Assembly (NCBI GenBank): GCA_021432605.1
Contig: MU271143.1
Location: forward strand, 4,039,277 to 4,103,276
Direction: 5' to 3'
Length of the DNA: 64,000 nt
Source of the DNA: Coniochaeta sp. PMI_546
Lineage: Eukaryota > Ascomycota > Sordariomycetes > Coniochaetales > Coniochaetaceae
Under the pieces are notes generated by a model. That model ran no database searches, was not told where the DNA came from, and saw only the letters and a list, made by a program, of their open reading frames with translations. Shown here one piece after another: positions 16,434 to 29,756 of the stretch. A program made the position numbers and the translations under genes. How positions within the stretch are numbered: the first letter of the stretch is position 1; the number at the start of each line of letters is the position of its first letter.

Positions 16434-17078
16434 CAGTGCCACACTGGTGCGATTGAACTTGTCGTACGCAAGGTAGATAGTTATCTGTTTGTCAAATAGC
16501 AGGCATTTTCATGAATCATTTACGCCTGTTATTTGGACATAAGGGTGAGTCTAGATTACAATACGTGTGTTGAAGCCTCGTCAATTCAGGTCCCGAGTTC
16601 AATTTGAAACTGAGTCTACTACATCGTCAACAACTGTCGATTTGCTTCGGAATTATGAAGAAACAAACAAGAATCTGGTTCAGGACATCCTATATTAGAA
16701 GAAGTCCCTAGCACATTCCTCTTCTCCATTCGCGCGCTCTAAAAATGCTGGGCTATTGACGCCACTACAAGACAAATCATCCACCTAACGCGGTCTGATT
16801 CAAAACATTGGGCGTACTTCATGATTGGCCGGGATACAAGCCGAAATCTTAGGGGCTGATAGCGCAGACAGGCACCGCCTGAGCCTCCGCCACGTCGCAT
16901 ATGCGACTGCGCATTATTTGTTCCAGCTCGTGCCTCTTCTTCCAGATGCATTTTTTGCTCTTCGAAGTTCCATATGCATCGCAACTCTCCGTTTCCGGTT
17001 ATCAGAACACCAATTTCACTAAACACACGTTCATTCTTTACCACACGTCCCTGTATCTTGGCTGTCAGCAGCATTGCC
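16434..17078. other. Spacer upstream of the HET gene
   Basis: About 645 bases; AT-richer than the flanking genes. It ends in the promoter and leader of the HET gene. No repeat or RNA gene seen. Confidence 0.5.
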
Positions 17079-19478
17079 ATGCCGTTATGTAGTGTCTGCT
17101 CCGAGATCGCATTTCACCCAGTCGACAAATTCAAGCCACGTAAAAATGATGGCCAAAGGGACAACTGTTCGGTCAGCGATAAGTTGCTTTTAAGGTTGGG
17201 ACAGATTCTCAGATATCGCTTTGCAGACGAGGAAGACAAACGATGTTTCGTTGCCTTCCTGCATCCAAGCTTTGATGAACTGAGCTCAAGCGTCAGGGAT
17301 CGCCGGCGAGACAACACAGTTTGCAAGTTTTGTGAGGTCTTGCATGAGATACTCATTCAGATTGAGACGAGGAGGCGACTGAGGGCGCAGAGCCGGAAGG
17401 GTTTGTTGACGAGTTCCGGATTTCTCTCTTACATCGAAGAATCTGTTAGGGCGATTCTTGTGGAAGAGGAACCCATACCCTTGACGGCCGAAGCTCCTCG
17501 TATCTACAAGAGGACACAGCTGAATGCTCATATGAGAAAAAGCCAGGCGGTTTGGTTGAGATACAGTGCTCCTAATCCGCTGATTGGATCTTGGGCCATG
17601 CCGACTCTCATCAGCGTCGGCAGGCAAGGCATGGAGGAGAGAGGCTCGCTGTTCCTTCTCCCGCCTCACTGGCCTGATCAACTTCTCGAGATAGCAGAAC
17701 CTGATGCTCTTCTTCCGTCCGGCATGAGTGTATCCGAGAGAGAGACAGACGAGTCAAGATTATCACAATCTGACACATCCACTGGTAGCGTCAGAGCTAT
17801 GTCGCTTACAGGCCGTTGGATCGATGAGTGTGCAGAAAATCATCCCTTTTGCAGCCTACAAGGAGGAGAAGGTCCGCTGCCTACGCGGCTTCTTAATCTT
17901 TACCCGGATGGGGGTGATGACCATGTCGCTCTCGTCGACGGAAAGTCAATCGCATCTCAACCTTACGCTCCCTTCTACGCCACTCTCTCTCACCGGTGGG
18001 GAAAGCACCCTCCAATGCAGACCACCAAAGCAAATGAAGAGTCCCATAGAGTGGGTATTCGTATATCAAGCTTACCGCAAACATTCCAGGACGCTGTCCG
18101 AGTCGCCAAGGCTCAGTTCATACAGTACTTATGGATCGATACTCTGTGTGTCGTACAGGACTCGGAAGTCGATCAGGCCACGGAGTTCCCCGCGATGGGA
18201 ACGTACTACTACAATGCTCACTTCAATATCTCTGCAGACTCGGCGGCGGACTGTCGCGTCGGTCTCTTCTCCGCTCGAAATGGCGCCACTCTTGAACCAC
18301 AGTCTTTAAGACTCCAGCATCATAGCGCTAGCGGACCATTACCAACCCAAACATGGACTGTCACTCCGAGGCTGGATGGCGGGAACAACATGCGATCAGC
18401 CGTGTCGATCTTGAATGACAGAGGATGGATATTTCAGGAACAAGTACTTGCGAGGAGGACTCTGCACTACAGACGAAACTCGGTCTCTTTCTCTTGCTAT
18501 ACTCACTTCGCTTCGGAGACCTTGCCCAGAGGTGTACCATACCGCATGCTCAACTCCCCGTACGTCAATCTCAATACAGCATCCGAGAGCATGAGTCTTT
18601 ATAATGACGTCCACAACTTGGGACTCGAGATGCAGGTCCTGAGAAAGCACGGACCGAACTATGACGGCGCACCCTCAAGCTCCAAGCGTGGACGGCTCTG
18701 GTACCGAGCAGTACAGCGGTATGCCCACCGATTATTGACCAGGGAAGAGGATAGACTGGAGGCAATCTCCGGGCTGGCGGAGGTACTGGGTGCCTCAGGC
18801 GACGACTACGTTGCTGGCTTGTGGATATCCGATCTCCTTGCTGGTTTATGCTGGTACACCTTCTGTCCACGTGGACAACGGTCTTTATCACAAACAGTGG
18901 TGTCTCGACAGGATGTAAACCAAGGACATTCCCAGGATATCTATATCTCCCCTAGCTGGTCCTGGGCTAGTGCATGTCCTGCAGAGATATGGTTTATGGA
19001 CTTGGACATCAATCGCGACAACGACGTGTCAGTGGTGCCGATGGCTCTCATCACGGACGTGTACTCGCTTCCCAGCACGCCTAATCCATATGGCAAGGTG
19101 AGCGACGCTCGAGTCACCATAACAGGGCGACTGATGAAGACAGTCATCCGTGCTGGGCGCAAAAAAGGGACAAGCGCACAACTGAGTTGGAGACTGCCGT
19201 CTGGTATACCGACGGAGCCAAAGAAGTCGGAGTTTTGGTGGGACGTCTCACAGGAATACGCACGGCAGGAGGGAGTTGCGTACATTCTTCCTCTGCGAAG
19301 AAGCTCGAAACCTTTATCAACTGGATCGAAGGGATCGGACCACTACCCATATTATTTCCAGGGGTTGATCTTGGAACAACAATCTGACGGCCGTTATAAA
19401 AGGGAAGGATATGCCAAGTTCATATGGACTTGTGCCGCGGTCAAGGGTATAGAAGAACAAACGGTGGTCATTGTGTAA
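17079..19478 (+). CDS. HET-domain (heterokaryon incompatibility) protein
   Basis: One exon, 799 residues from the ATG at 17079. I prefer this start to an in-frame ATG 35 codons upstream because MPLCSVCSEIAFHPVDKF is the usual opening (a Cys-x2-Cys pair) of this HET subfamily. A second Cys pair is in VCKFCEVLHE near residue 82. The HET domain (PF06985) spans about residues 299-450: FYATLSHRWG at 300, SLPQTFQDAVRVAK at 331, LWIDTLCVVQDS at 351, MGTYYYNAHFNISADSA at 373 and the WIFQEQVLARRTLHY block further on. The tail holds RDIYISPSWSWASAC-like sequence (DIYISPSWSWASA), a common end module. HET proteins trigger programmed cell death when non-self hyphae fuse. The domain is complete with no stop inside. 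Partner genes cannot be identified from the neighbours. Confidence 0.92.
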   Translation: MPLCSVCSEIAFHPVDKFKPRKNDGQRDNCSVSDKLLLRLGQILRYRFADEEDKRCFVAFLHPSFDELSSSVRDRRRDNTVCKFCEVLHEILIQIETRRRLRAQSRKGLLTSSGFLSYIEESVRAILVEEEPIPLTAEAPRIYKRTQLNAHMRKSQAVWLRYSAPNPLIGSWAMPTLISVGRQGMEERGSLFLLPPHWPDQLLEIAEPDALLPSGMSVSERETDESRLSQSDTSTGSVRAMSLTGRWIDECAENHPFCSLQGGEGPLPTRLLNLYPDGGDDHVALVDGKSIASQPYAPFYATLSHRWGKHPPMQTTKANEESHRVGIRISSLPQTFQDAVRVAKAQFIQYLWIDTLCVVQDSEVDQATEFPAMGTYYYNAHFNISADSAADCRVGLFSARNGATLEPQSLRLQHHSASGPLPTQTWTVTPRLDGGNNMRSAVSILNDRGWIFQEQVLARRTLHYRRNSVSFSCYTHFASETLPRGVPYRMLNSPYVNLNTASESMSLYNDVHNLGLEMQVLRKHGPNYDGAPSSSKRGRLWYRAVQRYAHRLLTREEDRLEAISGLAEVLGASGDDYVAGLWISDLLAGLCWYTFCPRGQRSLSQTVVSRQDVNQGHSQDIYISPSWSWASACPAEIWFMDLDINRDNDVSVVPMALITDVYSLPSTPNPYGKVSDARVTITGRLMKTVIRAGRKKGTSAQLSWRLPSGIPTEPKKSEFWWDVSQEYARQEGVAYILPLRRSSKPLSTGSKGSDHYPYYFQGLILEQQSDGRYKREGYAKFIWTCAAVKGIEEQTVVIV

Positions 19479-19683: not shown

Positions 19684-20559
19684 CTACGGTACACGAGATA
19701 TGGGCCATGTGTTACCGCCTATATCCAGACACAAATTCGTATCCCATCCCATATCCCAGGAAGAGAGCTTCACGTCGCCGGTAGGGCGGTCCTGCAACCC
19801 AGTCAGAGTCCCAGGGTGCTCATACTCATCGGGTATACGTGACAGCTTCTCGAAGAGGTTGTCGTCCGGATCCGCCAGGAAGTCGGCAAAATCAAAGCTC
19901 AGATCGTCCAGTACCCATTCGATGGGCTGGTTCTCCAGGCAGGACGTGGGTAGTGGTATCGCTAGTGATAGATCAAGTTGTGTCTCCGTTGAGGCCACCG
20001 TCGCACTGCCCAATTCTGGTCTCGCCGTCATGTCCCCTAGCACTCCAAAGCTTAGTGACTTGGAGCTTTGACGGTCGAAGCTGCTCGTGAGGTCGGTAGT
20101 TGAATCCCCGGCCTGTTGCCGCACGTACTCTGTCGGCGTCAAGCTCGTCACCTCCTTGAAGACGCGGTGAAAGTGCCACTTGGACAGCCCAGCCTGCCTG
20201 GCCATCTGGGCCAACCCCCCTAATGCGGGCAACGGTATCGGACCCTCAACGCCGGCACCAGCTAGGGGCAAATCCCGCTCAACCATTGCCCGCACTCGCT
20301 GTGCGGCCTTCCCTTCCGGCATCGGCCCTGCCAGGTCAGGCTTGCACCGTTTACAGGGACGATATTGCGCCCGCTCGGCCTCGGCGGCCGTGTCAAAGAA
20401 GAGCACGTTGGCTTGGCGCGCGAGTCGTGCCTTGCACACAGGCCGGCAGTAAATCTTGGTCGTGCGCACCGCGTAGACGAAGACACCGTCGGCCGACGCG
20501 GTTCTCTGCTTGACGGCATTCCAGCGCGCCTTTTGGCTGAGGAAGGCCGGACTCAACAT
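19684..20559 (-). CDS. Ada-like Cys4 methylphosphotriester-repair/AraC-HTH protein
   Basis: One exon, 291 residues. The N-terminal domain matches the metal-binding half of bacterial Ada: GVFVYAVRTTKIYCRPVCKA, VLFFDTAAEAERAQYRPCKR. The four Cys ligands fall at residues 38, 42, 69 and 72, the same numbering as in E. coli Ada; Cys38 is the residue that takes a methyl group from DNA phosphotriesters. An AraC-type helix-turn-helix follows at about 107-150 (LAQMARQAGLSKWHFHRVFK, SLTPTEYVRQQ). No second Cys-containing methylguanine-transferase domain is present; the C-terminal 140 residues are acidic and low complexity, resembling an activation region. Role: methyl-damage sensing regulator in the nucleus, inferred from Ada. 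It is divergent from a flavin-reductase-like gene across a 669-base spacer that holds a duplicated segment. Confidence 0.88.
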   Translation of the reverse strand: MLSPAFLSQKARWNAVKQRTASADGVFVYAVRTTKIYCRPVCKARLARQANVLFFDTAAEAERAQYRPCKRCKPDLAGPMPEGKAAQRVRAMVERDLPLAGAGVEGPIPLPALGGLAQMARQAGLSKWHFHRVFKEVTSLTPTEYVRQQAGDSTTDLTSSFDRQSSKSLSFGVLGDMTARPELGSATVASTETQLDLSLAIPLPTSCLENQPIEWVLDDLSFDFADFLADPDDNLFEKLSRIPDEYEHPGTLTGLQDRPTGDVKLSSWDMGWDTNLCLDIGGNTWPISRVP

Positions 20560-20746
20560 GCTCTCTAGCGTCTTTGTGATGCTGTGAAGGACCCGACAGA
20601 GGATGATTTACGGTGATGGTGAGAGTAGTGGATGAGGTTTCGTTGATTCAGTTGCCGATATGAAGTCGCACAAGCTAAGGGAGTAAGACTAGACTGAATC
20701 CCAATAGAAACGAGTGACGGAGACGTCTGGACTGAGAAAGCTGAAA

Positions 20747-26401: not shown

Positions 26402-27937
26402 TCACCATCTCTTGGCACCGTACGCCATCTCGCTCACCGTGTAGAAATCACCCGCTCCCTCGCCGGGAAATATGATATGCCCCGTCGCGTACTTCCGCGT
26501 CCAGTGTAGGGCCCTCCTCTGGAACTCGTCTTGGTCACTGGTCCACTCCGAGGGCAGCGCGCCTTGAATGGGATCTTCCCAGATTGGCTCGTCGAGAATA
26601 GAGGCCACACTCACGAGGACCTTCTCCAGAGTGAAAGAAGGGGCCCATCCAGACCCAAATAGGTCTGTGCATATGGCTCCATGCGAATCGATGTTTGGAT
26701 GGAGAATCCTGGTCACGAACCAGACCCGCGGCGGACGGAAGGGATAGTAACCATTGAGGTTGAATCGCACGTGGAAGATGCCACCCTCGTATGGTGTGCC
26801 GGTCGGGCCACGGATGGTGCCGAGAAACTTGTCCAGGTTGCATTCGTTGAGCGGCGCGATGGTGAACCACCCGTTGGGCTTTGCCTGTCTCGCCCAGTCC
26901 TTCATCTCCGTAAGCACGCGGCGAGTGAACACGGGCCCCAACTCCTCAGATATGCTTTCATCCGCTTCGTTCGACGGCATGGGAACATCTGCCAAAAGCT
27001 TGGTGCATGCACGGCGATTCTGCGCTTCTAGGGTGCCGAAGTCGATGTGCCCACCGTCGGCCTGCTCTTGATCATGGGAAGCCTCGCGAATGCTCGTGAT
27101 GTGTCCGTCCGAGCTCAGGTGCGATGCAACGTTAGTCTGGGCCGTTACAAAGGTACCGTCAGCGCTGAACGCCGTGTCGATGGTACGGGCCTCGATGGAC
27201 CTGAGGCGAATACTAGCTGCGCTGGACACGACAGTCGCATTGTCGCGCGAGCTCTCCTCGATCTCAATGAGCGCCGCCTCGCTGACTTCTTGGACTGTTT
27301 CAGCCGCTAGTTCTTCTGCTGTCCTGACAACCCTGATATCGCGGCTCAGTTTCTCCAAGTCATCGACCAGGGCCGTGACTTGGGCCAAGAGCGTGGCGGC
27401 TTTCTTCTCATCTCGGATCGACCACTTCGCCTTCTTCCACACGCCCACGCCCTTCTCCCGCGGCTGAACAAAAGCCTGGAATATGGTGACGCGAACACTC
27501 CTCTCACGCTTGCCGCGGAAAACGGCTCGCAAGCGGGTGTACCTGGTGCGAAAAATGGCCGATGAAAAGCCATCAGACGTTAGGCCATCGGCTTCCCCGT
27601 CAGAGTTAGCCTCTCCTGCATGCACATTGAGACCGTATTTCTGGACTAGCTCGTCGGTGTTCGAGAAGAGGCGATAGATGTGGCCCAGCGTCTCGCCGAT
27701 CTGACGGGCCCGGACCTGGGGCGAGTCAAGTGCCTTGTTGTACCCTGCGGGTGAGAAGAAACCCAGCTTCTCAGCCCAGATGAGGAAGACGGCACGTTGG
27801 TTGTCAATCCTCGTCCGGAAGTAGCCAAAGTTCTGGGCCTGGGTCCGAGCGGCATCAACAAACTCCCATGCCTCCAGGGCCGTCTTAAACAGACCTGCCA
27901 GGCCAGCAATCCCGATTGCTAGGCCGGCCACTTCCAT
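26402..27937 (-). CDS. HeLo domain-E2 ubiquitin-conjugating enzyme fusion
   Basis: One uninterrupted exon, 511 residues. Residues 1-220 resemble the HeLo domain of Podospora HET-S: MEVAGLAIGIAGLAGLFKTA, AWEFVDAARTQAQNFGYFRT, then KKAKWSIRDEKKAATLLAQV and VDDLEKL match the same positions of HET-S (VAGLFNN, EYVQLGR, KKTAWALYDGK, VDELEKA). HeLo forms membrane-damaging assemblies in cell death. Residues about 220-335 are a polar linker. Residues 338-485 are a UBC fold: FLGTIRGPTGTPYEGGIFHV, YYPFRPPRVWFVTRILHPNI, then GAICTDLFGSGWAPSFTLEK and WTRKYATG. The HPN triad is 413-415 and the catalytic Cys is C423, the spacing of UBE2D. The E2 lies where HET-S carries its prion-forming tail; no amyloid repeat is visible. 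Divergent from an F-box-like gene. E2 activity and ubiquitin control of HeLo are inference. Confidence 0.9.
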   Translation of the reverse strand: MEVAGLAIGIAGLAGLFKTALEAWEFVDAARTQAQNFGYFRTRIDNQRAVFLIWAEKLGFFSPAGYNKALDSPQVRARQIGETLGHIYRLFSNTDELVQKYGLNVHAGEANSDGEADGLTSDGFSSAIFRTRYTRLRAVFRGKRERSVRVTIFQAFVQPREKGVGVWKKAKWSIRDEKKAATLLAQVTALVDDLEKLSRDIRVVRTAEELAAETVQEVSEAALIEIEESSRDNATVVSSAASIRLRSIEARTIDTAFSADGTFVTAQTNVASHLSSDGHITSIREASHDQEQADGGHIDFGTLEAQNRRACTKLLADVPMPSNEADESISEELGPVFTRRVLTEMKDWARQAKPNGWFTIAPLNECNLDKFLGTIRGPTGTPYEGGIFHVRFNLNGYYPFRPPRVWFVTRILHPNIDSHGAICTDLFGSGWAPSFTLEKVLVSVASILDEPIWEDPIQGALPSEWTSDQDEFQRRALHWTRKYATGHIIFPGEGAGDFYTVSEMAYGAKRW

Positions 27938-28880: not shown

Positions 28881-29756
28881 ATGTCCGCCGGCATCGCGGA
28901 GCAAGCTGCCATGTCACAGCCCCGGGCCGTTGGCATGAACGACATGCCCCCGGAGATCGTCCTTCAGATATTCTACCAGCTGTTATATGTCATCAACAAT
29001 GGAAGGGGGCACCAATGGCTGACCGAGGACTTCGAGCGCATTACTTCCATGGCGGAGCTGAACAGAATCGCCACGGTTTCCAAGCACGTCTATCGGTGCT
29101 TCAAAGACAGTGAGTTTGCCATCTTCCGCCGCCTCGTCCACTGGACCCTTGTCGACCACTCTGACATCCCCGGCTTCGCTGACCTTGTGATCAAAATCGG
29201 CAGCCTGAAGTTCATGAAAGACCGGCCGACGGATCCTGATGAGATCGAGGGAATTCTGAAGGGGGTCCAGAGAGACGAGTGGCGGAGACGGAGTCGTCGA
29301 CACTTCACGCCTGAAGTGAGCGTCAAGCTCGAACCCAAGCATTATGATGGTGTGTTGGACTGGCTTGCGAGTTACTTTAGAGCCGGCACGATACTGAACA
29401 ACTACTACCGCAGGCTGAATAAGACTGAGAGCCGAGGGATCGGGGTACCGTGTCAGACTTTTGTGATCCATCCGTTTGACGTACTCTACCCACAGAGTGT
29501 GTATGACGTGCCGATGCTACCCAAGAGCGAGCGGGTTGAGTTCTATATCAGTCAACTCCTCGAGGAGGTGGAGAAGTGGAGGAAGCATGTCAAGACGCCG
29601 TGGACGAAGGAGGAGACTGAGTACTTGGATAGTGCCAAAGAGGAGGACAACCCTCTGGCTGAGCCATGCTGTTTGGCGATCGATTGCCCACGCGGGCCAT
29701 GCGATGGTGCAGAGCAGTCATATGCTCTGCAGTGGCTCAATGGCTGGCGGGGGTGA
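28881..29756 (+). CDS. F-box-like protein
   Basis: One exon, 291 residues. Near the N-terminus MNDMPPEIVLQIFYQLLYV has the F-box opening L/M-P-x-E-I-x-x-x-I-F; after an insertion the second half is AELNRIATVSKHVYRCFKDS followed by FAIFRRLV, as in many fungal F-box proteins. The rest (DWLASYFRAGTILNNYYRRL, FYISQLLEEVEKWRKHV) shows no known repeat. F-box proteins bind Skp1 and recruit substrates to SCF ubiquitin ligases in the cytosol or nucleus. The insertion of about 20 residues makes the F-box match moderate, so it may be a degenerate one. It is divergent from the HeLo-E2 gene, which suggests a possible functional link, unproven. A CACC precedes the ATG at 28881. Confidence 0.65.
   Translation: MSAGIAEQAAMSQPRAVGMNDMPPEIVLQIFYQLLYVINNGRGHQWLTEDFERITSMAELNRIATVSKHVYRCFKDSEFAIFRRLVHWTLVDHSDIPGFADLVIKIGSLKFMKDRPTDPDEIEGILKGVQRDEWRRRSRRHFTPEVSVKLEPKHYDGVLDWLASYFRAGTILNNYYRRLNKTESRGIGVPCQTFVIHPFDVLYPQSVYDVPMLPKSERVEFYISQLLEEVEKWRKHVKTPWTKEETEYLDSAKEEDNPLAEPCCLAIDCPRGPCDGAEQSYALQWLNGWRG

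What the first reader, a model, noticed from the sequence alone, without database searches (positions are those of the whole stretch)
26402..27937. HeLo cell-death domain fused to a catalytically complete E2 ubiquitin-conjugating enzyme
Seen: one uninterrupted 511-codon exon with a HET-S-like HeLo domain (1-220), a polar linker and a UBC fold with HPN at 413-415 and Cys at 423, the spacing of UBE2D. Known: HeLo domains are membrane-active death effectors, normally triggered by a C-terminal prion-forming amyloid; E2 enzymes carry thioester ubiquitin. Here the E2 occupies the amyloid position and no amyloid repeat is visible. Inference: a death effector under ubiquitin control, self-ubiquitinating, or an E2 targeted by HeLo oligomers to membranes. 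I do not recall this architecture as a characterised system.
Basis: partly seen in the sequence, partly recalled or inferred. Interest (0 to 1): 0.92.

Follow-up and report, generated by a model that had tools for sequence, protein, structure and literature searches.

The report
Fungal death domain fused to ubiquitin-enzyme
A fungal gene joins a domain known for membrane-attacking cell death to what looks like a working ubiquitin-transferring enzyme, and more than a hundred related proteins share this pairing, which points to a ubiquitin-linked branch of fungal self-defence that I did not find described.

Summary
Window 26402-27937 (-) is one uninterrupted 511-codon frame: HeLo (PF14479, E=5e-35, residues 5-220), a linker, then an E2 (PF00179, E=1.6e-34, residues 341-477; best PDB match UBE2D2) with HPN 413-415 and Cys423.

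It is not an assembly error. Of 143 proteins collected by homology, 135 (this one included) carry HeLo then E2, with named species in three fungal classes. The Cys is kept in 136 of 138 sequences with a letter there. Of ten relatives scanned for extra domains, four have ankyrin, two TPR and one a kinase after the E2: the outline of a fungal NLR with an E2 where its ATPase would be.

The two members that lost the Cys sit apart on the tree, each beside a Cys-intact sister. They also rank among the lowest five of 84 for hydrophobicity of the HeLo membrane helix under six measures, and lowest two under three of them. On n=2 this hints that the two activities are used together.

Not shown: ubiquitin transfer, toxicity, or which module controls the other. 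Structure prediction never ran (queue full, 21 attempts). Seven searches on this pairing found no paper describing it. Verdict: a real, conserved, apparently undescribed variant of HeLo effectors.

The parts
26402..27937 (-). whole gene, single open frame, 511 aa: HeLo - linker - E2 (UBC) - short tail
27878..27937 (-). HeLo N-terminal hydrophobic segment, residues 1-20 (by homology the membrane-acting first helix)
   Evidence: best 19-residue Kyte-Doolittle mean 1.79; role of this helix in HET-S from passages of PMC12881547
27278..27925 (-). HeLo domain PF14479, residues 5-220
   Evidence: 121.6 bits
27128..27271 (-). conserved post-HeLo element, about residues 223-270
   Evidence: weakly in HeLo proteins P0022 and P0026; one match in the genome
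27002..27349 (-). lysine-free stretch, residues 197-312, covering most of the linker
26507..26917 (-). E2 / UBC domain PF00179, residues 341-477
   Evidence: 118.9 bits
26693..26701 (-). HPN motif, residues 413-415
   Evidence: in the family H and P in 139 of 139, N in 137 of 139
26669..26671 (-). catalytic cysteine codon, Cys423
   Evidence: Cys in 136 of 138

Best explanation
The gene encodes a member of a widespread family of HeLo proteins of filamentous ascomycetes in which a catalytically complete UBE2D-like E2 follows the HeLo domain. SHOWN by sequence: the fusion, its presence in three fungal classes, near-invariance of the E2 catalytic residues, a hydrophobic HeLo N-terminus in this member, and no recognisable amyloid switch. 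INFERRED: the HeLo part is a membrane-active death effector, as in HET-S, and the E2 is its built-in regulator. An E2 charged with ubiquitin, with a RING E3 partner, modifies the HeLo module or its partners in cis and keeps the protein restrained or short-lived until a trigger frees the HeLo bundle to oligomerise and insert its first helix. In the ankyrin and TPR members the C-terminal repeats would be the sensor. The protein would thus be an E2-gated, necroptosis-like effector: MLKL with an E2 in place of the pseudokinase.
For: Both domains far over cut-off in one exon. 135 of 143 collected proteins have HeLo then E2. Cys in 136 of 138, H and P of HPN in 139 of 139, N in 137 of 139, against a mean majority fraction of 0.69 over the 149 E2 columns with at least 100 letters. 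Positions equivalent to UBE2D R5, F62 and W93 (names recalled) are near-invariant: 133 of 138, 137 of 139, 134 of 136. The two Cys-lost members, P0002 (Tyr) and P0015 (Ser), are the two least hydrophobic at helix 1 of 84 members scored under three of six measures, and within the lowest five under all six. Each has a Cys-intact sister (P0001, 100/98; P0013, 100/93), so the losses are separate. A weakened helix with the Cys kept does occur (P0097, P0016, P0091), while Cys loss with an intact helix was not seen: the asymmetry expected if the E2 restrains the HeLo. HeLo is followed by kinase-like sequence in three other frames of this genome (DUF7580 over cut-off in two of them, protein-kinase models below cut-off in all three), so HeLo plus a following enzyme-like domain is not unique to this gene.
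Against: The direction of control is not shown. The same asymmetry arises if the E2 is the output and is lost once the HeLo can no longer deliver it, or if both decay together. The coupling rests on two events, was noticed after looking, and its exact rank depends on the measure: under the plain mean of the first 18 aligned positions the two rank 3rd and 5th of 84, behind Cys-intact P0097 and P0091. P0002's missing first residues could be a late start in the gene model. The lysine-poor linker of this clade is mild evidence against linker self-ubiquitination, though the HeLo part keeps 12 lysines; the second clade shows no such bias (60 of 118 lower). Some equivalents of UBE2D residues that contact E3s or E1 (K8, R90, Q92; recalled) are not kept in this protein. 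No E3, substrate, expression or toxicity data. No structure model.
Confidence: 0.35

Rival explanations
1. The E2 is the effector and the HeLo is its address. HeLo oligomerisation at membranes concentrates charged E2 and, with a RING partner, ubiquitinates membrane or immune proteins, much as NLR N-terminal enzymes act by proximity.
For: E2 active site kept in 136 of 138; several E3-facing positions kept; Cys lost only in members with a weak membrane helix, as expected if delivery is needed; ankyrin or TPR tails in six of ten scanned relatives as possible sensors; lysine-poor linker in this clade, as reported for other ubiquitin-pathway proteins (abstract of PMC10169902).
Against: The HET-S HeLo domain is itself cytotoxic in bacteria and yeast (passages of PMC12881547), so a HeLo is more than an address; no substrate or E3 known.
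Confidence: 0.3
2. Integrated decoy: the E2 is bait for a parasite factor (mycovirus, bacterium, mycoparasite) that attacks the host ubiquitin system, and tampering with it releases the HeLo.
For: The E2 is UBE2D-like, a general-purpose kind (recalled); it stands where a switching module would; the same genome seems to hold an unrelated E2 fused to a HET domain; the locus has HET and NACHT genes nearby.
Against: A decoy need not keep the catalytic Cys, yet 136 of 138 do; no parasite factor known; E2-dead members with an intact helix, which a decoy model allows, were not seen.
Confidence: 0.15
3. Not a death protein: the HeLo serves as a scaffold or localisation domain of an E2 with another role.
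For: A HeLo match alone does not prove toxicity; some members have a weakened helix 1 (P0016, P0097, P0091); HeLo-less relatives with a similar E2 exist (P0023-P0025; P0128 and P0135), though these may be truncated models.
Against: Helix 1 is strongly hydrophobic in most members read (median 2.03 of 89). This genome has one such protein and its relatives are diverged (35-75% identity to it across P0002-P0017), unlike what I would expect of a housekeeping E2.
Confidence: 0.12

Closest known systems
HET-S of Podospora anserina (HeLo + amyloid prion domain)
   Same: N-terminal HeLo with hydrophobic first segment; residues 1-213 match the solved HET-s HeLo chains
   Different: no amyloid family reported; the C-terminal half is an E2 enzyme; no second copy of the linker element found in the genome
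HeLo/HELL-kinase proteins and MLKL
   Same: membrane bundle followed by an enzyme fold; three HeLo frames with kinase-like sequence in this same genome (kinase models below cut-off); HELL-kinase proteins are mentioned in passages of PMC12881547
   Different: the enzyme is a ubiquitin E2, not a kinase or pseudokinase
Fungal NLRs with an N-terminal HeLo
   Same: HeLo first; ankyrin or TPR repeats last in six of the ten relatives scanned, which were picked for unusual extra domains
   Different: no NACHT or NB-ARC; the E2 occupies the middle. This window's protein has no repeats
UBE2D / yeast Ubc4 E2 enzymes
   Same: HPN, active-site Cys, and equivalents of UBE2D R5, F62, D87, W93 and D117 in this protein (names recalled)
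   Different: fused to HeLo; equivalents of K8, R90 and Q92 not kept in this protein (K8 is K in 8 of 17 of its clade); the D117 equivalent varies in its clade but is D in 117 of 118 of the other

Membership tests
HeLo domain proteins (PF14479) | profile match over the curated cut-off | tested here: met
   121.6 bits against 23.2
HeLo domain proteins (PF14479) | N-terminal hydrophobic membrane helix | tested here: met
   best 19-residue hydrophobicity 1.79; a sequence measure only
HeLo domain proteins (PF14479) | membrane permeabilisation and cell death | not testable with these tools
   needs expression assays
HET-S type amyloid-controlled effector | C-terminal HET-s-related amyloid motif | tested here: not met
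   no amyloid family at E<=1 in Pfam (the HET-s model PF11558 is named in a passage of PMC4986451); filters may miss very short motifs
HET-S type amyloid-controlled effector | same motif at the N-terminus of an NLR of the genome | tested here: inconclusive
   linker piece matched only itself; six-frame search with one first-look candidate
Ubiquitin E2 (PF00179) | UBC fold match over the cut-off | tested here: met
   118.9 bits against 27; UBE2D2 E=2.5e-33
Ubiquitin E2 (PF00179) | HPN motif and active-site Cys | tested here: met
   HPN 413-415, Cys423; Cys 136 of 138 in the family
Ubiquitin E2 (PF00179) | forms a ubiquitin thioester from E1 | not testable with these tools
   needs a charging assay
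NOD-like receptor (NLR) | NACHT or NB-ARC domain | tested here: not met
   none in this protein at E<=1 nor in the ten relatives scanned at E<=1e-4
NOD-like receptor (NLR) | C-terminal ankyrin, TPR or WD40 repeats | tested here: not met
   absent here; present in P0051, P0066, P0114, P0115 (ankyrin) and P0129, P0131 (TPR)
MLKL / HeLo-kinase | kinase or pseudokinase domain after the bundle | tested here: not met
   one relative, P0060, has a kinase after the E2

The most novel reading that the evidence does not exclude
Filamentous ascomycetes have a class of immune receptors built like NLRs (membrane-attacking HeLo at the N-terminus, ankyrin or TPR sensor at the C-terminus) in which the switch in the middle is not an ATPase but a ubiquitin-charged E2, so that the state of the ubiquitin thioester decides between life and death. 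The window's protein is the short, repeat-less form of this class, as HET-S is the short partner of an NLR.
Probability: 0.2. Interest if true: 0.93.

Novelty: new variant of a known kind. Interest (0 to 1): 0.74.

Why it matters
Two reviews of fungal cell death and immunity in which I searched for the word (PMC12881547, 2025; PMC10197012, 2023) show no occurrence of 'ubiquitin' in the main text. A large, conserved family joining a HeLo to an active-looking E2 puts ubiquitin transfer inside a putative death effector and makes a direct test possible: mutate one cysteine and ask whether the cell dies more, less or the same. If the E2 gates the HeLo, fungi have a necroptosis-like effector controlled by a thioester instead of a pseudokinase or an amyloid. 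If the E2 is the output, HeLo proteins are not only pore formers.

Tried and rejected
Amyloid in the linker: considered because the conserved element lies where HET-s has its prion domain. Not supported: no Pfam amyloid family at E<=1, no second match in the genome (limited search), and the element is weakly shared with two HeLo proteins without an E2.

Assembly or gene-model artefact: rejected for this gene; one uninterrupted exon and the same order in proteins from many contigs. Not excluded for individual relatives with repeats.

Dead E2: rejected for this protein; applies to P0002 and P0015.

Lysine desert as proof of E2 activity: weakened. Linker K/(K+R) is 0.20 in clade 1 and 0.41 in clade 2. 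Seven other frames of the window give 0.31, so the bias is moderate. In clade 1, 14 of 17 are lower than their own HeLo and 3 higher (one of the 17, P0014, has only a HeLo fragment); in clade 2, 60 of 118 are lower. P0010 has 8 linker lysines. The Cys-lost P0002 has no more linker lysines than P0001 (1 and 1); P0015 has 4.

Single origin of the fusion: the tree puts the 56 family rows on one side (96/88), but only seven other E2s were included, three of them on long branches, so this is not claimed.

Sharpness of the helix result: my first text called the two Cys-lost members simply the lowest two of 84. A recheck with six measures shows lowest two under three of them, and ranks 2/3, 1/3 and 3/5 under the others.

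Rows dropped or limits: of 138 HeLo-bearing proteins, 91 have helix 1 aligned; 2 of these (P0124, P0125) were dropped for lacking the Phe used as anchor (with them n=86; the two keep the same ranks), then 3 without E2 and 2 without a letter at the Cys column, leaving 84. The other 47 could not be scored, many because the gene model starts after helix 1. P0043 (active-site region missing) and P0089 (truncated) have no letter at the Cys column. Searches scored only about 8,000 candidates each; one search listed 120 of 169. Twelve of those 120 had extra precomputed domains; ten were scanned, P0117 and P0136 were not. Loci L039, L040 and L041 were fetched and not analysed. Codon-level selection was not tested: I fetched no relatives' DNA, the genome collections on offer being prokaryotic or viral.

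Papers: nine of ten searches used. Seven concern this pairing: searches returned no paper, one, eleven; I saw 20 of 81 and 15 of 182 titles. One search asked about HET with E2 (none), about lysine deserts. I looked inside 8 papers: PMC9815663, PMC12258605, PMC3689799, PMC12881547, PMC10197012, PMC6525431 and PMC4986451 as passages around search terms, PMC10169902 as abstract and outline. Of the eleven papers I looked inside three.

Full report
WHAT IS THERE. The frame at 26402-27937 (-) is real and uninterrupted. Pfam gives HeLo at residues 5-220 (E=5.1e-35) and UQ_con at 341-477 (E=1.6e-34), both far over the curated cut-offs. The E2 is closest to UBE2D2 among solved structures (E=2.5e-33). 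Residues 1-213 match only the HET-s HeLo chains in the PDB (best E=5.4e-7). HPN is at 413-415 and Cys at 423. The window belongs to a 33.5-Mb assembly of 24 contigs; the gene content is fungal. There, 7 HeLo matches and 33 UBC matches were found (some of the latter evidently exons of one gene), and only at this locus do both lie in one frame.

HOW WIDE IT IS. A search with the protein found 21 relatives; 19 carry both domains by the database's own Pfam assignment, among them proteins of Cylindrodendrum, Fusarium and Stylonectria. A profile of a second clade found 169, of which 120 were listed and 116 of those carry both. Named sources include Hypoxylon, Apiospora, Podospora didyma, Glarea, Mollisia, Botrytis aclada and Cladophialophora; many others are unnamed. 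I checked the class of three species: Cylindrodendrum hubeiense, Sordariomycetes; Glarea lozoyensis, Leotiomycetes; Cladophialophora psammophila, Eurotiomycetes. With HMMs built here, 135 of the 143 collected proteins, the window's own included, have HeLo and E2, in that order in all 135. In one of them, P0043, the E2 match is split and its active-site region is missing. The set was collected by similarity and is no census.

IS THE E2 ALIVE. Across 140 aligned E2 domains, H and P of HPN are kept in 139 of 139 with a letter, N in 137 of 139, the active-site Cys in 136 of 138, and the equivalents of UBE2D F62 and W93 (names recalled) in 137 of 139 and 134 of 136. The mean majority fraction over 149 columns is 0.69. 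This is what selection for catalysis looks like. Against a simple UBE2D copy: the equivalents of K8, R90 and Q92 are not kept in this protein, and the D117 equivalent varies in its clade while it is D in 117 of 118 of the other clade.

A NATURAL EXPERIMENT, SMALL. Two members lost the Cys: P0002 (Tyr; the closest relative, 75% identical) and P0015 (Ser). On the tree each has a Cys-intact sister (P0001 with P0002, 100/98; P0013 with P0015, 100/93), so these are two separate losses. P0002 also lacks the first seven aligned residues, which is either a deletion in helix 1 or a late start in the gene model; P0015 has three acidic residues in that stretch where this protein has one. Of the 84 members in which helix 1 and the Cys column can both be read, these two have the lowest helix hydrophobicity in the measure first used (0.51 and 0.55; median of the 89 scored 2.03). 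If placed at random they would take the lowest two places once in 3,486. Five other measures give the lowest two places twice more, and ranks 2 and 3, 1 and 3, and 3 and 5 otherwise. Cys-intact P0097, and under the last measure P0091 and P0016, lie among or below them. The pattern was noticed after looking and this clade is prone to helix change, so I treat it as a lead. Members with a weakened helix and an intact Cys exist (P0097, P0016, P0091). The reverse was not seen. That asymmetry fits an E2 that restrains the HeLo, and equally an E2 that is useless once the HeLo cannot deliver it. P0002 and P0001 are equally similar in HeLo (77%), linker (74%) and E2 (75%); the E2 branch of P0002 is longer than that of P0001 (0.42 against 0.17), as relaxed constraint would give.

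THE LINKER. Residues 223-266 hold an element conserved in the family. A profile of it, built from 21 of these sequences, finds 118 of the 135 HeLo-E2 proteins at E<=10 and, weakly, two HeLo proteins without E2, but none of the six other HeLo frames of this genome. It is not a visible amyloid. In the window's clade the linker is poor in lysine (K/(K+R) 0.20 against 0.42 in the HeLo part; 14 of 17 lower); this protein has a lysine-free run from 197 to 312. Lysine deserts are described for ubiquitin-pathway proteins (PMC10169902, abstract). Other genes of the window stand at 0.31 and the second clade has no such bias, so the point is weak.

A THIRD MODULE. Twelve of the 120 listed relatives had extra precomputed domains; I scanned ten. 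Four have ankyrin repeats and two TPR repeats after the E2, one a kinase, one a PPIP5K2 N-terminal domain, one a zinc finger, and one (P0043) has no Pfam-detectable E2 but a SAM domain. The ankyrin members sit in different parts of the tree. [quoted passage not shown] A HeLo-E2-repeat protein therefore has the outline of an NLR with the ATPase replaced. Merged gene models cannot be excluded for single cases. Most listed members have no such third domain.

SURROUNDINGS. The start codon lies 943 bp head-to-head from that of a frame with a weak F-box-like match below cut-off (15.2 bits against 24.3). A HET gene lies 7 kb away (16863-19475), another at the window's end, and a NACHT match 6 kb outside the window. 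The genome has 87 HET matches, so such neighbours are not rare. In the same genome the last exon of an E2 runs on in one open frame into a HET domain, and the exon with HPN and Cys stands directly before it in another frame, an intron apart by inspection (C13:226509-227727). If that gene model holds, E2s have been joined to two unrelated fungal incompatibility domains.

WHAT IS KNOWN. Seven library searches on this pairing showed no paper on a HeLo-E2 protein; two of them returned more titles than I saw. The one paper holding both Pfam numbers lists them in separate categories (passage). Public annotations name such proteins 'prion-inhibition and propagation' or 'ubiquitin-conjugating enzyme', so the domain pair is visible in databases but, as far as I could search, undiscussed. 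A Podospora study lists HeLo proteins with kinase-like, Rho and P-loop partners and found 7 of 9 HeLo genes induced in incompatibility (PMC3689799, passages).

JUDGEMENT (opinions). Existence and conservation of the architecture: about 0.97. Active E2: about 0.85. HeLo active in death: about 0.7 by homology. E2 restrains HeLo: 0.35. E2 as output: 0.3. Decoy: 0.15. No death role: 0.12.

Noticed in passing
G000 C13:226509-227727 (-), loci L032 and L038: The last exon of an E2 (Ubc13-like by recollection) continues in one open frame into a HET domain (E=4.5e-33); the exon with HPN and Cys stands directly before it, an intron apart by inspection. A second, unrelated E2 fusion to a fungal incompatibility domain. 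No paper found for 'HET domain' with 'ubiquitin-conjugating'.
   Followed up: partly
G000 C13:529791-530108, locus L028: UBC domain followed by an F-box-like match below cut-off in one 645-aa open frame.
   Followed up: no
G000 C17:393170-393752 (-) and C17:398220-398840 (-): An E2 match lies about 4.5 kb downstream of a HeLo match on the same strand, not in one frame; L041 was fetched but not analysed.
   Followed up: no
window 16863-19475 (+) and about 63803-64000 (-): Two HET-domain genes in the window; a NACHT match lies 6 kb outside it.
   Followed up: partly
window 28881-29756 (+): Head-to-head neighbour with an F-box-like match below cut-off.
   Followed up: no
window 19687-20607 (-): Ada metal-binding domain with an AraC-type HTH, a bacterial-type regulator plan, in a fungal genome.
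   Followed up: no
P0023, P0024, P0025: HeLo-less relatives that keep a similar E2, the end of the linker and the tail; gene fission or truncated models.
   Followed up: no
P0018-P0021: About 20 extra residues between the Cys and the conserved Trp, at the place where Cdc34-type E2s carry an active-site loop insertion (comparison recalled).
   Followed up: no
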